DNA from: Lachnospiraceae bacterium
Lineage (GTDB): Bacteria; Bacillota; Clostridia; Lachnospirales; Lachnospiraceae
Length of the DNA stretch: 64,000 nt
Direction of reading: 5' to 3'
NCBI GenBank assembly: GCA_017626095.1
Contig: JAGAJL010000017.1
Span: 1 to 64,000 of the forward strand
The notes below the pieces were generated by a model. That model worked only from the letters and a program-made list of their open reading frames with translations, was not told where the DNA came from and did no database searches. Both the position numbers and the translations under genes were made by a program. Below, in pieces: positions 1 through 54,252 of the stretch; within the stretch, counting starts at the first letter, position 1, and every line of letters begins with the position of its first letter.

Positions 1-66
1 AGTATGACTTTGAGACCCGCAAAACATGAGAAAGTAGCCCGATTAGGGCGGATTTCGAATGTTTTA

Positions 67-134
67 GGATTGCGAGAGCACAAAGTGCGTAGCAATCCGT
101 TGGTATCATGGGGGCAAAATACCTTTTGACCCCA
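67..134. repeat. composite intergenic repeat of two hairpins upstream of fliF
   Basis: Two stem-loops lie side by side. The first (67-98) pairs GGATTGC with GCAATCC and nests GCAC/GTGC around a 3-nt loop. The second (109-134) pairs TGGGG-CAAAA with TTTTG-CCCCA around a TACC loop with one mismatch. The first stem recurs with the same arms at 46378-46403, so it is a dispersed repeat rather than a one-off. The first 129 bases also read as an open frame ending in TGA at 127-129. It matches no flagellar protein I know and runs through the hairpins, so I treat it as non-coding. The fliF ribosome-binding site AAAAGGAG (153-160) follows. Confidence 0.6.
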
Positions 135-9645: not shown

Positions 9646-9720
9646 CCGGACCTTATGGAGGCTAACTTGTTTTCGAATGACAGAGAAAACAGACGGTGCA
9701 AAACAGGAGGTCGTTTAATT

Positions 9721-11382
9721 ATGATGAGATCACTCTACTCTGGTGTATCGGGATTGAAAACACATCAGGTCAAAATGGATGTAATTGGTAATAATATTGC
9801 GAATGTTAATACAACAGCATATAAATCTCAGTCCATAACTTTTTCGGAATTAATGTATCAGACAACACAGGCTGCCAGTGGACCGAATGCTACAAGCGGT
9901 ACTGCAGGTACCAATGCAAAGCAGATTGGTCTTGGTGTAAAATCAGGCGCTATCAGTACGGCAATTGAAACTGCAGGTGCTTCTCAGACAACCGGCAATC
10001 CGTTTGATATCCGTATTACCGGAGATTCATTTTTTATCGTTAGTGACGGTAGCAAAAACTTCTTTACCAGAGACGGATCTTTCTATGTAGACAGTGTCGG
10101 TAATCTGGCAATGTCATCCAACGGATATAATGTCATGGGATGGCAGGTTGATGAGACAACAGGAACTATCAAAAAAGATACGGTTTCCGCATTACGTATT
10201 ATGAGTGCGGAAAATATGACATATCCGCCGGAGGCAACAACCAAGGCATACGTTTCCGGTATTATTGATAAAAACGATGTTCAGGTTGCTTCCGAATCCG
10301 GTAAGATCATGAATTTAAGCTTTTTTGATAAGTTAGGATATGCTTATACTGCAAAATTGTCCATGAAAGAGACCGATACACTTGGTCTGTATTCTATAGA
10401 ATTGACTACGATACTGAATGAAAACGGGGAGGAAGTGAATATCCCCGGAGTACAGCTTGGCAGTGTATCAACAGCACCTCAGGTGCAGTCATTGGTTATG
10501 AGTTCCGCTTACACACTTGCTGGCAACAACTTGTCTTATGTGGATGATGGTGGTGCGACACAGACGATTGATTTGACAAGTACTGCATTGACGGATGCAG
10601 AGAAGGAAAAAGTTGCAAATGCATTTGGTTATTCTTCATATACGGAATTTGCAAAATTAACTTTGGCAGATGGAACAACGGTTGGTTCGTATGTGGACGC
10701 AGGTACTTTGACCACCACAGGCGTATTGACTGCCGGAACAGATGCAGAAGGCAATCCGATTACTATATTAAATACAGCAGGTCGTCAGGTAATAGGTGGC
10801 TTAATCCAGTATGATACTGCTACCGGTACGATTAAGAGTGTCAACGGATTGACCAATGATTTTGGATTGAATTTGTCCTTTGGTGCTTCTACATATCCAG
10901 CGGGACCTTATGAAACAATCAGTATTGATTTTTCTACTTCCACCAACTTTAACAATAACGGTACCAGTACCATCAGTGCAGATCCCGGTGATACACAGGG
11001 GAGAGGCACAGGCCGAAAACTTGGTGCAATGTCCGGTATTTCCATTCAGAATGACGGTATGATTTATGCTTCTTATGACAATGGACAGACCAGACTTTTG
11101 GGTCAGATGGCAGTAGCAGAATTTACCAATGCTTCCGGTTTGCAGAAAGAAGGCGACAATCTTTATTCTGCAACATTAAACTCCGGTGAGTTTGATGGCA
11201 TCGGTGTTGATATCTCTGCAAACGGTGGATATATGGAAACCGGTGTTTTGGAAATGAGTAATGTTGACTTGTCAGCAGAGTTTACCGATATGATCACCGC
11301 TCAGCGTGGTTTCCAGGCCAATTCCCGTATCATCACCGTATCCGATACCTTGTTGGAAGAATTGGTTAACTTAAAGAGATAG
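9721..11382 (+). CDS. flgE: flagellar hook protein FlgE
   Basis: Builds the flexible hook. The N-terminal rod/hook signature is MRSLYSGVSGLKTHQVKMDV followed by IGNNIANVNTTAYKS. The C-terminal signature MITAQRGFQANSRIITVSD is also clear. From ATG 9721 the length is 553 residues, longer than the 402 of Salmonella, with extra surface domains between about 170 and 400. The frame is open back to 9655, but AGGAGG at 9705-9710, 10 nt upstream, fixes the start at 9721 (or ATG 9724). It ends before a 1.2-kb non-coding region that separates it from flbD; in most relatives flbD follows closely. Confidence 0.95.
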   Translation: MMRSLYSGVSGLKTHQVKMDVIGNNIANVNTTAYKSQSITFSELMYQTTQAASGPNATSGTAGTNAKQIGLGVKSGAISTAIETAGASQTTGNPFDIRITGDSFFIVSDGSKNFFTRDGSFYVDSVGNLAMSSNGYNVMGWQVDETTGTIKKDTVSALRIMSAENMTYPPEATTKAYVSGIIDKNDVQVASESGKIMNLSFFDKLGYAYTAKLSMKETDTLGLYSIELTTILNENGEEVNIPGVQLGSVSTAPQVQSLVMSSAYTLAGNNLSYVDDGGATQTIDLTSTALTDAEKEKVANAFGYSSYTEFAKLTLADGTTVGSYVDAGTLTTTGVLTAGTDAEGNPITILNTAGRQVIGGLIQYDTATGTIKSVNGLTNDFGLNLSFGASTYPAGPYETISIDFSTSTNFNNNGTSTISADPGDTQGRGTGRKLGAMSGISIQNDGMIYASYDNGQTRLLGQMAVAEFTNASGLQKEGDNLYSATLNSGEFDGIGVDISANGGYMETGVLEMSNVDLSAEFTDMITAQRGFQANSRIITVSDTLLEELVNLKR

Positions 11383-11387
11383 TCTAA

Positions 11388-11459
11388 ATAGATAGTATAA
11401 AGACAATTGAAAGAGGTAATCAAAATAGATAGTCGAAGATGATTGAAAGAAAATCAAAA
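11388..11459. repeat. degenerate direct repeat after flgE
   Basis: Two copies of about 35 bp begin with ATAGATAGT (11388 and 11425) and contain ATTGAAAGA and AATCAAA at matching places. They start 6 nt after the flgE stop. More degenerate copies of the same words (ATTAAAGAAG, TTTCAAAGATTG) run to about 11500. They look like a decaying tandem array rather than coding sequence. Confidence 0.55.
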
Positions 11460-11536
11460 AAGAATGATTAAAGAAGTATTTCAAAGATTGTCTGAAAGAT
11501 TGTTAATTCTTTTGCAAGTTAATAAACAGATATATA

Positions 11537-11584
11537 GAAACATAGGGATGTTTTTCGTATAATCGAAGAGTGTCCCTATGTTTC
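11537..11584 (+). repeat. 12-bp inverted repeat, possible terminator or processing hairpin after flgE
   Basis: GAAACATAGGGA (11537-11548) pairs perfectly with TCCCTATGTTTC (11573-11584). The loop contains a second short stem, TTCG/CGAA, around TATAAT. No long T-run follows, so this is not a canonical intrinsic terminator. It could mark an RNA-processing site or weak terminator separating the fliF-flgE segment from flbD-motA. Confidence 0.6.
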
Positions 11585-11605
11585 GTTGGAGTGGTGCATT
11601 TTATG

Positions 11606-11858
11606 GTCAATTGGCGGTCGCCGGGAAAATATCATTTATTTCACGCACAGACTAACGTTGATAAGTTTATCTAAATATTTCGGGAAAGTAAATTTGTCTT
11701 CGTACGCACACGGTGCAAATTGGACGTCCTGTCCAATTGCACCTTTCGCGACATCCGTGTCGCGAAGTGCTGGTTTTAATTCGAAATATTAAGATAAACT
11801 AATCAACAGCGTCAAATGTGCGAGGAAATAAATGATATTTTCTCGGCTCGGAATTGAC
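11606..11858 (+). repeat. structured palindromic element A (three-stem layout)
   Basis: A 253-bp imperfect palindrome. The outer arms begin GTCAATT (11606) and AATTGAC (11852). They match again over AAAATATCATTTATTTC and over AAGTTTATCTAAATATTTCG (11663-11682) against its near-complement at 11782-11801. The centre has two hairpins: HP1 at 11712-11743 (GGTGCA, ATTGGAC / GTCCAAT, TGCACC, one bulged A) and HP2 at 11745-11766 (TTCGCGACA, loop TCCG, TGTCGCGAA, nine perfect pairs). An inverted copy is element B at 12309-12534. No credible gene lies inside. Confidence 0.85.
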
Positions 11859-11897
11859 TTGTGCAAAATGTTATTTGTGGAACTAATTTATAATATT

Positions 11898-12309
11898 CGA
11901 TTGGCACTTATTTAGACCCTTTAGCAAGAAAAGTGTCGGTTTAGCCTGACAGATGGATAGAGTCTGTAGGCCCAAAGCAAGAAAAAAAGTCAGCTTGGCA
12001 TGACTGGTGGATAGATGTAGTAGGTCCAAAACAAAAAATAGCTCAGCTTGGTCTGACTGGTATACAGGGGCTGTAGGCCCCAAGCAAGAAAAAAAGTCAG
12101 CTTGGCATGACTGATGGATAGATGTAGTAGGTCCAAAGCAAGAAAAAAGTCAGCTTGGCATGACTGGTGGATAGATGTAGTAGGTCCAAAACAAAAAAAT
12201 GGCCAGTTTGGCATGAAAGGTAGCTGGAGGTAGTAGGCCCCAAATTAGAAAAATAGTTGATTTGGTATGTCAGATAAATACAACCTGTAGCCCGAGCCCA
12301 AGAATAAAG
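11898..12309. repeat. array of seven 53/54-bp tandem units plus one partial unit
   Basis: A partial unit (11898-11935) is followed by units at 11936-11989, 11990-12042, 12043-12096, 12097-12149, 12150-12202, 12203-12256 and 12257-12309. The best-conserved words are TCAGCTTGGCATGACTG at the start, GTAGTAGGTCCAAA or CTGTAGGCCC in the middle, and an A-rich end (GCAAGAAAAAAAG). Units 2, 4 and 5 are nearly identical; units 1 and 7 have drifted most. Lengths alternate between 53 and 54, so no reading frame survives. There are no spacers of unrelated sequence, which excludes CRISPR. The array touches element B at 12309. Confidence 0.9.
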
Positions 12310-12534
12310 TTTTTGTAAATATTGTTTTTGAAAGTTTATTGTGCAGATGCATTAGTTTATCTTAATGTTTCATTCAAAAAACAGCAATTCGCAGCATGGA
12401 TGCTGCGAAAGGTGCACCGCGGACATGGATGTCCGAGTGCACCGGTGCGTCCGTTATCATAATTGTTACGATGAAACATTTAGATAAACTTATGCATCGA
12501 AACCTAAACTTGAAAAAACAATATTTACAAAAAC
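12309..12534 (-). repeat. structured palindromic element B, inverted copy of element A
   Basis: A 226-bp imperfect palindrome. The arms are GTTTTTGTAAATATTGTTTT (from 12309) and its complement ending at 12534, then GATGCATTAGTTTATCTTAA paired with the segment around 12471-12497. HP2 is TTCGCAGCA-TGGA-TGCTGCGAA (12388-12409). HP1 is 12411-12443 (GGTGCAC ... GTGCACC with an inner GGACA/TGTCC). Read on the minus strand it aligns with element A from end to end over the inner arms and both hairpins, in the same order. Confidence 0.85.
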
Positions 12535-12558
12535 GGGCCCCGAGAAACGGGCCCCGAG
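12531..12558. repeat. 14-bp GC-rich tandem duplication
   Basis: AAACGGGCCCCGAG occurs twice in direct succession (12531-12544, 12545-12558), followed by the partial copy AAAACGG. It overlaps the right end of element B and lies directly ahead of flbD. GGGCCC is self-complementary and the local GC is far above the surrounding AT-rich sequence. Confidence 0.8.
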
Positions 12559-12595
12559 AAAACGGAAAAACGTGAACCGGAAATGGAGGATTCGT

Positions 12596-12778
12596 ATGAT
12601 AGAAGTGACGAGATTGAATGGGACGAAAATTTTGATTAATCCGGATTTGATTGAGTTTGTTGAAGAAACGCCTGATACAGTCATCAGCTTTACAACCGGA
12701 CGCAAAATAATCGTAAAAGAAAGTAGACAAGAGATAAAAAATCTGGTAATATTGTACAGAAAGGATATTTTTACTTAA
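12596..12778 (+). CDS. flbD: flagellar protein FlbD (SwrD-like)
   Basis: Small cytoplasmic protein of the FlbD/SwrD family, which in Bacillus subtilis increases motor torque needed for swarming. The 60 residues show the family pattern: IEVTRLNGTKILINPDLIEF, then a threonine-rich middle and GRKIIVKESRQEI. TGGAGGA (12584-12590) fixes ATG 12596; an upstream GTG at 12572 has no SD. It lies directly ahead of motA, as in other Firmicutes, consistent with a stator-related function. Confidence 0.88.
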   Translation: MIEVTRLNGTKILINPDLIEFVEETPDTVISFTTGRKIIVKESRQEIKNLVILYRKDIFT

Positions 12779-12805
12779 GAGGTAAAAAGGACAGGAATTT
12801 TTTCA

Positions 12806-40040: not shown

Positions 40041-40053
40041 TGTTCTTAGTCAT

Positions 40054-40355
40054 CGTTTCTCACTTATTATTCGCAACTTTGGAGATATAGCCGGTTGTCC
40101 TTACAGAAATACATATCTTTGTTGCGGAATTTGGCGAGGTTTCTTGACATTTCTTAGCGGCATATGCGAACAAAAATAATCCCCAGTTTCAACTGTTTGA
40201 AGACGAAGTCTGAGTTTTGAAACCGGGGATTTAATATATACTTTGTGAGCATGCCGCTTAGAAATGACGGAAACCGAAGTATGAAGCGGCAAAGATATGT
40301 ATTTCTGTAAGGGCGACCGGCATCACACAAAGTTGCGAATAATAAGTGAGAAACG
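40054..40355. repeat. 302-bp imperfect palindrome (element C) between the kinase gene and ispG
   Basis: The outer 28 bp (40054-40081) are perfectly complementary to 40328-40355. The arms match again over the stretch around TTACAGAAATACATATCTTT and CATTTCTTAGCGGCAT, with few changes. The core is AATCCCC-GTTTCAA (40178-40192) paired with 40217-40231 around a small AGAC-GAA-GTCT stem. All pairs share one axis near 40204.5. A small minus-strand frame inside is explained by the palindrome. In RNA it would be one very long hairpin. Confidence 0.92.
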
Positions 40356-40410
40356 TGACGGAGAATTAGGATTAAATGGTTATAGCATAATCGGAAGAAA
40401 GATTCAAGTA

Positions 40411-54040: not shown

Positions 54041-54071
54041 TAAAAAGGGATGCTGGTCCATTTTTATCATT

Positions 54072-54226
54072 TTGTGCATCAGAGAAATTTATATATTCTA
54101 CTAACAGACTGTATGACAACGTCAGCACTTAATGAGCAATTTATTGCGAATTTAGTACTGTTACGTTGTCATCCAAGTGAGAACGCGTCTGTGAGTAGAA
54201 TATATAAATTTCTCAGATGCACACAA
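54072..54226. repeat. 155-bp imperfect palindrome (element D) between nrnA and the next gene
   Basis: The outer arms (54072-54109 and 54187-54226) match over GAGAAATTTATATATTCTAC and the flanking GTGCAT and GTCTG, with two changes and a 2-nt insertion. The inner arms pair TGACAACGT (54114-54122) with ACGTTGTCA (54163-54171), and AGCACT with AGTACT. The centre is GCAAT-TT-ATTGC (54136-54147). An open frame through it is a product of the palindrome. Confidence 0.88.
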
Positions 54227-54252
54227 TTGGCAAAGAACACAATTGGCAAAGA
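54221..54252. repeat. 16-bp tandem duplication at the edge of palindrome D
   Basis: ACACAATTGGCAAAGA occurs twice head to tail (54221-54236, 54237-54252), beginning inside the right arm of palindrome D and ending 26 nt before the next start codon. It may mark the junction left by an insertion or a slippage event. Confidence 0.8.

What the first reader, a model, noticed from the sequence alone, without database searches (positions are those of the whole stretch)
11606..12534. Two inverted copies of a three-stem palindromic element with compensatory changes
Element A (+) and element B (read on the - strand) share outer arms (AAGTTTATCTAAAT and its partner) and two internal hairpins in the same order. 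In HP2 the stem is TTCGCGACA/TGTCGCGAA in A and TTCGCAGCA/TGCTGCGAA in B: the inner pairs changed on both sides and the loop stayed TCC(G/A). HP1 shows the same kind of paired change (ATTGGAC/GTCCAAT versus GGACA/TGTCC inside a kept GGTGCA/TGCACC). This is what selection for structure, in RNA or single-stranded DNA, would leave. No transposase is nearby, so this looks like a non-autonomous mobile or regulatory element.
Basis: seen in the sequence. Interest (0 to 1): 0.78.

Follow-up and report, generated by a model that had tools for sequence, protein, structure and literature searches.

The report
Paired palindromic repeats with CsrA-type hairpins
Two back-to-back copies of a known but unexplained hairpin family (Rfam TwoAYGGAY) sit between flagellar genes; in this group of bacteria the family behaves like a dispersed DNA repeat whose tips look like landing sites for the RNA-binding regulator CsrA.

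Summary
A (11650-11814, minus) and B (12339-12505, plus) are full-length copies of Rfam RF01731 TwoAYGGAY (111 and 107 bits), a family of unknown function. The genome has 29 copies; 8 of 9 genomes of the genus carry it. Neighbours within 1.4 kb are inverted doublets in 30 of 31 cases, joining two sequence types in 21 of 26. Outer arms pair within a copy, hardly with other copies. Paired changes are strong (38 of 42 pairs), but G-U exceeds A-C only weakly in cores and not in arms, unlike a SAM-riboswitch control, so much of the pairing may be kept at the DNA level. The tips carry hairpins fitting the published CsrA/RsmE site, and carriers have CsrA more often than non-carriers (42 of 46 against 25 of 82 genomes), which supports a CsrA link proposed in 2014. 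Best reading: REP/BIME-like dispersed palindromic repeats, spread by an unknown agent, whose transcripts can bind CsrA. Mobility, transcription and binding are inferred, not shown.

The parts
11650..11814 (-). Element A, TwoAYGGAY core (type b / cluster 1)
   Evidence: cmscan RF01731, 111.2 bits, gathering 43; cluster 1
11620..11642 (.). Element A left outer arm (pairs with 11825-11847)
   Evidence: 96% complementary
11825..11847 (.). Element A right outer arm
11712..11743 (-). Element A second hairpin in Rfam direction; CAGGACG, one loop base short of AYGGAY
11745..11766 (-). Element A first hairpin in Rfam direction, CACGGATG (fits CANGGANG)
11947..12237 (.). Tandem repeat, period 53, 5.4 copies, in the spacer between A and B
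   Evidence: TRF; among the loci searched it matches only the same site in G002 and G008
12339..12505 (+). Element B, TwoAYGGAY core (type a / cluster 2)
   Evidence: cmscan RF01731, 107.1 bits; cluster 2
12309..12338 (.). Element B left outer arm (pairs with 12505-12534)
   Evidence: 93% complementary
12505..12534 (.). Element B right outer arm
12388..12409 (+). Element B first hairpin, CATGGATG
12411..12443 (+). Element B second hairpin, CATGGATG
11537..11584 (+). Hairpin after flgE, also seen in the relatives printed that lack the elements (terminator-like); element A begins just after it
9655..11382 (+). flgE (flagellar hook family)
   Evidence: Pfam PF06429, PF00460
12596..12778 (+). flbD
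   Evidence: Pfam PF06289

Best explanation
A and B are one inverted doublet of a dispersed palindromic repeat family, TwoAYGGAY. Each copy is a long DNA palindrome (core of about 165 nt plus arms, in most copies 20 to about 200 nt) with two hairpins at its tip. The repeats have spread between genes by an unidentified agent and gather as inverted doublets, as REPINs and BIMEs do. On one strand the tip is a pair of near-optimal CsrA/RsmE sites. Whenever that strand is transcribed, by read-through from a neighbouring gene, one copy can bind CsrA at two sites, so that tens of copies together act as a scattered CsrA sink or local CsrA target. Shown: copy number, doublets, two types, copy-specific arms, paired changes, CsrA-type loops, and co-occurrence with CsrA. 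Inferred: mobility, transcription, CsrA binding and its effect.
For: 29 copies in this genome, all above the Rfam cut-off; 8 of 9 genus genomes carry it, G005 has none; 21 of 150 family and 22 of 391 class genomes, a patchy spread. Within 1.4 kb, 30 of 31 neighbour pairs are minus-left/plus-right. In G000, G002 and G008, 21 of 26 inverted pairs join cluster 1 with cluster 2, 10 of 10 in G000 (orthologues not independent). Outer-arm pairing score: median 27.8 within a copy, 3.8 with other copies of the genome, 1.0 shuffled; own score best in 197 of 230. Covariation: 304 cells changed on both sides against 75.6 +/- 9.2 shuffled, at most 69 when slid. Tip hairpins: CANGGANG 320 plus CAGGANG 76 of 450 counted; 165 of 236 copies have two, 66 one, 5 none; the reverse strand has 3 CANGGANG against 321. 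The published high-affinity site is an ANGGAX loop directly on a stem, closed by C-G in the structure described (PMC4005645, passages). CsrA: 26 of 27 carriers against 10 of 21 non-carriers, and in a second set of genomes 16 of 19 against 15 of 61; Fisher 1.4e-4 and 5e-6. Window site: filled in G000 and G002, and with B plus part of the spacer before the contig ends in G008; RF01731 is absent from 17 further flagellar loci.
Against: No promoter enrichment in front of copies. In tandem-gene settings (single copies of the genus plus the other-genera copies) the CsrA-type strand is sense in 53 and antisense in 46, so no orientation bias. Strand preference in folding is slight: 128 of 236, Wilcoxon p 0.024, less than in mononucleotide shuffles, 145 of 232. 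No excess of G-U over A-C in arms (91:124 and 198:241) or between orthologues (50:61). G002 (24 copies) has neither csrA nor fliW found; G334, G414 and G476 carry copies without a CsrA match. CsrA co-occurrence may reflect shared ancestry or motility and is not corrected for either. Non-carriers may hide weak copies, since the large searches scored at most 17 or 7 candidates per genome. The model that found the copies favours GGA loops. Doublet spacers printed do not look alike (by eye, apart from same-site pairs), so the doublet may not move as a unit.
Confidence: 0.5

Rival explanations
1. Pure DNA element: a REP/MITE-like non-autonomous mobile palindrome recognised as folded single-stranded DNA by an unidentified enzyme; the GGA loops are protein-recognition features in DNA and the CsrA link is an accident of phylogeny.
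For: Doublets, high copy number, copy-specific arms and nearly strand-neutral pairing; no orientation bias to genes and no promoter signal; site differences among relatives.
Against: CsrA co-occurrence in two sets of genomes; loop and closing pair match the CsrA consensus on one strand only; no Y1 transposase match in G000 or G008, the latter listed 100% complete with 31 copies; G-U above A-C in genus cores and the inner stem.
Confidence: 0.3
2. Classical structured RNA (CsrB/RsmZ-like small RNA or cis-regulatory leader) selected as RNA; the repeats are duplications of it.
For: Rfam classes it as an RNA; covariation is very strong; CsrA-type loops; G-U over A-C in genus cores (133:62), G129 (13:2) and G012 (7:1) and in the inner stem of 236 cores (162:97).
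Against: No own promoter signal, no sense bias to genes, little strand preference in folding against a SAM control, G-U about equal to A-C over other genera (12:13) and in arms, arms that differ between copies, and copies at many sites.
Confidence: 0.12
3. Bidirectional transcription terminator or 3' end protector maintained next to gene ends.
For: Copies are enriched between convergent genes (43 convergent and 22 divergent of 164, against 16 and 32 of 141 in background, test); the Rfam 3' side is nearer to a gene in 47 of 70 singles.
Against: A run of five T within 12 nt outside the arms is rare: 8 of 235 copies at the 3' end, 9 of 235 at the other end read antisense. At the window site a separate hairpin already follows flgE. 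Conserved GGA loops are not needed for termination.
Confidence: 0.08

Closest known systems
Rfam RF01731 TwoAYGGAY (Weinberg et al. 2010, PMC2864571; one table passage seen)
   Same: Both elements match the whole model far above cut-off; two GGA hairpins on a long stem.
   Different: In the passage seen it is listed as probably an RNA, not cis-regulatory, not a switch; inverted two-type doublets, copy-specific outer arms and repeat-like dispersal are not mentioned there. One loop of A is a base short of AYGGAY.
REP / BIME / REPIN repeats (PMC3116915, passages seen)
   Same: High-copy, extragenic palindromes in inverted doublets with less conserved spacers.
   Different: Units here are about 165-560 nt with a two-hairpin tip, and spacers between arms run from 32 to 1258 bp; no Y1 (RAYT-type) transposase match in G000 or G008.
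CsrA-binding small RNAs (CsrB, RsmY, RsmZ); CsrA hypothesis for TwoAYGGAY (PMC4333381, passages seen)
   Same: ANGGAN loops closed by C-G, two per element in most copies; most carriers have CsrA.
   Different: Dozens of dispersed copies, no detectable own promoter, no orientation rule to genes, no binding data seen.

Membership tests
RF01731 TwoAYGGAY | Covariance-model score above gathering cut-off over the full model | tested here: met
   111.2 and 107.1 bits against 43, positions 1-168
RF01731 TwoAYGGAY | Two AYGGAY terminal loops | tested here: met
   B: ATGGAT twice; A: ACGGAT once, the other loop AGGAC is one base short, so A meets it in part
RF01731 TwoAYGGAY | Stems kept by paired changes | tested here: met
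   38 of 42 pairs, 0 of 500 shuffles as high (34 copies)
REPIN/BIME | Inverted doublets over-represented, extragenic | tested here: met
   30 of 31 neighbour pairs within 1.4 kb; cores lie between genes in the loci mapped, apart from some overlaps with simple ORF calls
REPIN/BIME | Short REP unit of 20-40 bp (size from the abstract of PMC3733652, listing) | tested here: not met
   Core about 165 nt plus arms
REPIN/BIME | RAYT / Y1 transposase in the genome | tested here: not met
   0 matches at E <= 1e-5 in G000 (86.6% complete) and G008 (100%), both rich in copies; present in some other carriers
MITE (TIR plus target duplication) | Clean empty site with target duplication | tested here: inconclusive
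   Site differences look like deletions or diverged flanks
CsrB/RsmZ-like CsrA-binding RNA | ANGGAN-type hairpin loops, several per RNA | tested here: met
   Two per element in 165 of 236, one in 66, none in 5
CsrB/RsmZ-like CsrA-binding RNA | CsrA encoded in carriers | tested here: met
   42 of 46 carriers; exceptions G002, G334, G414, G476
CsrB/RsmZ-like CsrA-binding RNA | Own promoter and discrete transcript | tested here: not met
   No sigma-70-type enrichment upstream of copies; the transcript itself is not testable here
CsrB/RsmZ-like CsrA-binding RNA | Physical binding of CsrA | not testable with these tools
   Needs an experiment

The most novel reading that the evidence does not exclude
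TwoAYGGAY is a spreading palindromic DNA repeat that has captured, or depends on, the host CsrA system: its doublets seed genomes with dozens of paired high-affinity CsrA sites, giving these Clostridia a scattered CsrA sink built from mobile repeats instead of a dedicated CsrB gene, or making CsrA a factor the repeat needs in order to persist.
Probability: 0.25. Interest if true: 0.82.

Novelty: new variant of a known kind. Interest (0 to 1): 0.57.

Why it matters
TwoAYGGAY has had a name and a structure since 2010 but no established function in the papers seen. If the CsrA link holds, it would be a CsrA-binding RNA family in Clostridia and a case where a repeat family supplies regulatory sites genome-wide. 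The nearly strand-neutral stems also warn that covariation in long palindromes may come from DNA-level copying and need not prove an RNA.

Tried and rejected
Y1/RAYT transposase as mover: presence does not follow the elements and is nil in G000 and G008. A common gene beside copies that could be the autonomous partner: shared ORF clusters were listed but not identified, so this is not excluded. Own promoters: no enrichment. Composite unit with a conserved spacer: spacers of different doublets look unrelated (by eye). Spacer tandem repeat as a structured RNA: z -1.4 and +0.3. Clean empty sites: at the L114 site G000 and G002 keep a left half-arm, which I read as a remnant left by deletion; the C55 and C38 sites look like deletions. 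The window site's relatives have diverged flanks.

Corrections: notes entry 2 and the binomial used 29 of 30 doublets; the recount gives 30 of 31. One search also tested type pairing per site with hand counts (12 of 15, 11 of 14); I report the 21 of 26 instead.

Dropped rows: three matches below the Rfam cut-off (G007:C3, G003:C40, G003:C41) were left out of the 135; 4 of 240 fetched copies shorter than 150 nt were left out of the 236 cores. From the listing 105 copies of 13 other genomes were used; several printed copies of G150 (contig ends) and G074, and those not printed, were not fetched. CsrA non-carriers are 61 handles taken as negative because one search did not list them as positive. 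G011's CsrA match below cut-off was not counted.

Full report
What is there. The locus lies between flgE and flbD-motA-motB (Pfam). A and B fold as described. Both are full-length Rfam RF01731 TwoAYGGAY: A 11650-11814 minus, 111.2 bits; B 12339-12505 plus, 107.1 bits; cut-off 43. No other family reaches its cut-off in 11380-12805. Inverted repeats with arms of 22 nt or more within 800 nt are rare: one search lists 7 arm pairs in 64 kb, 3 of them from A and B.

Copies. G000 has 29 matches, all over the cut-off. In the genus 8 of 9 genomes have it: 29, 16, 24, 26, 5, 0, 3, 4 and 31 matches, of which the 135 over the cut-off were used. In the family 21 of 150 genomes, 20 genera, in the class 22 of 391; these two searches scored at most 17 and 7 candidates per genome, so copy numbers and presence are lower bounds. 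None of 14 control genomes has it.

Doublets. Of 34 neighbour pairs less than 3 kb apart, 31 are minus-left/plus-right and one each has the other three arrangements; within 1.4 kb it is 30 of 31. Orthologous doublets in G000, G002 and G008 are counted separately, so these are not independent. Cores of these three genomes (84) fall into clusters of 33, 40, 6, 3, 1 and 1; 21 of 26 inverted pairs join the two large ones, 10 of 10 in G000; the other 5 join like with like. Spacers of different doublets look unrelated. In three pairs a gene or two lie between the copies: a GntR/aminotransferase-type regulator and an N-acetyltransferase in G002:C19, a CAAX-protease-like gene in G004, and an ORF without Pfam match in G002:C44.

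Arms. Own pairing score has median 27.8, against 3.8 with other copies of the same genome and 1.0 for shuffled flanks; the own arm wins against up to 8 others in 197 of 230. Some copies do share arm sequence (266 of 1684 cross-copy scores reach 15). Arms are thus fast-changing but paired.

How the pairing is kept. On 34 copies and 42 pairs, 95.5% of cells pair, 38 pairs show changes on both sides, 304 such cells against 75.6 +/- 9.2 in shuffles, and sliding partners gives at most 69. One-sided changes are few (18 against 303 two-sided; SAM-riboswitch control 23 against 41; the SAM set is less diverged, 0.86 against 0.60 identity). For an RNA one expects G-U to be tolerated on one strand. SAM gives G-U:A-C 31:7. 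TwoAYGGAY gives 20:14 on the same 34 copies, 133:62 on genus cores, 12:13 over other genera, 13:2 in G129, 7:1 in G012, 9:5 in G050 and 12:10 in G045; by a strand-neutral pairing of 236 cores it is 9:4 and 12:15 in the two hairpins and 162:97 in the inner stem. In arms the counts are 91:124 and 198:241. Between 59 orthologous copy pairs at 95% identity there are 59 paired Watson-Crick changes and 11 other doubles where 5.3 doubles are expected for independent sides, and single changes give G-U 50, A-C 61, other 67; stems diverge 3.4% per side, unpaired bases 9.3%. The MFE is lower on the Rfam strand in 128 of 236 copies (Wilcoxon p 0.024; shuffled cores 145 of 232) and in 28 of 30 for SAM. So the core shows a weak RNA-like asymmetry and the arms none: much of the pairing looks like a property of the DNA, for example kept by template switching in palindromes (mechanism recalled, not tested), with selection at the tip.

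The tip and CsrA. Of 450 tip hairpins counted in 236 copies, 320 fit CANGGANG and 76 CAGGANG; 165 copies have two, 66 one, 5 none. The model that found the copies itself favours such loops, so this is not an unbiased count. The GGA of both loops is invariant or nearly so in the 34-copy alignment while most stem pairs vary. The published high-affinity site is an ANGGAX hexaloop directly on a stem; leaving out N lowers affinity (PMC4005645, passages). A 2014 paper proposed CsrA binding for TwoAYGGAY (PMC4333381, passages). Here carriers have CsrA in 26 of 27 genomes against 10 of 21 non-carriers, and in a second set sharing no genome with the first in 16 of 19 against 15 of 61; Fisher 1.4e-4 and 5e-6, uncorrected for phylogeny or motility. 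Exceptions: G002 lacks both csrA and fliW matches although flagellar genes are present, which may be an assembly gap; G334 and G414 are 84 and 88% complete; G476 is 98% complete with one copy at 50 bits. G005, same genus, lacks elements, csrA and fliW.

Position and mobility. The window site is filled in G000 and G002; in G008 the contig ends in the spacer, with B present. Rfam finds no copy in 17 further flagellar loci; where both gene ends could be read by pattern (10 of the 17) the flgE-flbD gap is 73-207 nt, against 1139 in G002. In the five of these printed, a terminator-like hairpin follows flgE, then a short spacer to flbD. The flanks have diverged, so no target duplication can be read. 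Other sites differ between G000, G002 and G008 by presence of one or both copies; several look like deletions. Copies sit more between convergent and less between divergent genes than background (43 and 22 of 164 against 16 and 32 of 141; simple ORF calls). In tandem-gene settings the Rfam strand is sense in 53 and antisense in 46, and no promoter-like enrichment lies upstream. No Y1 transposase was found in G000 or G008.

Conclusion. The elements are members of RF01731. They work like a REP/BIME-type dispersed palindrome in arrangement, but fail the size and transposase tests for that class. The tip most likely binds CsrA when transcribed; that step and the agent of spread are inferred. Papers were searched for TwoAYGGAY and RF01731 (7 and 4 papers held the terms); in the passages read from five of them none describes doublets, repeat-like copy number or co-occurrence with CsrA; PMC7682815 was seen in the listing only.

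Noticed in passing
window 40050-40358: Another long palindrome (outer arms 28 nt 100%, inner arms 32 nt 94% complementary, folding z -19.5) that is not TwoAYGGAY and has no Rfam match near a cut-off; pieces of it recur in L179, L110, L096 and L095.
   Followed up: partly
window 54069-54227: Inverted repeat with 41-nt arms, 93% complementary, 77 nt apart; partial matches in L189 and L398, which are the same place in a genome of another genus.
   Followed up: no
window 11947-12237: 53-nt tandem repeat, 5.4 copies, between A and B, 98.7% identical over the spacer in G002; several units hold TGGATAG.
   Followed up: partly
window 1-108: Clostridiales-1 RNA (RF01699), cut by the window edge.
   Followed up: no
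L093 2280-4669 (G002:C19): A GntR/aminotransferase-type regulator and an N-acetyltransferase lie between a type-b and a type-a copy where G000 has only a 229-bp gap.
   Followed up: partly
L097; L120 and L121 (G002:C44, G008:C8): A third type of copy with nearly identical ends (94% in G002) brackets 1.3 kb in G002 and about 8 kb in G008, a variable interior between inverted copies.
   Followed up: no
L387 (G050:C54): A second CsrA-like ORF (132 aa) lies about 1.2 kb from a TwoAYGGAY copy; several carriers have two or three CsrA-like matches.
   Followed up: no
   Followed up: no
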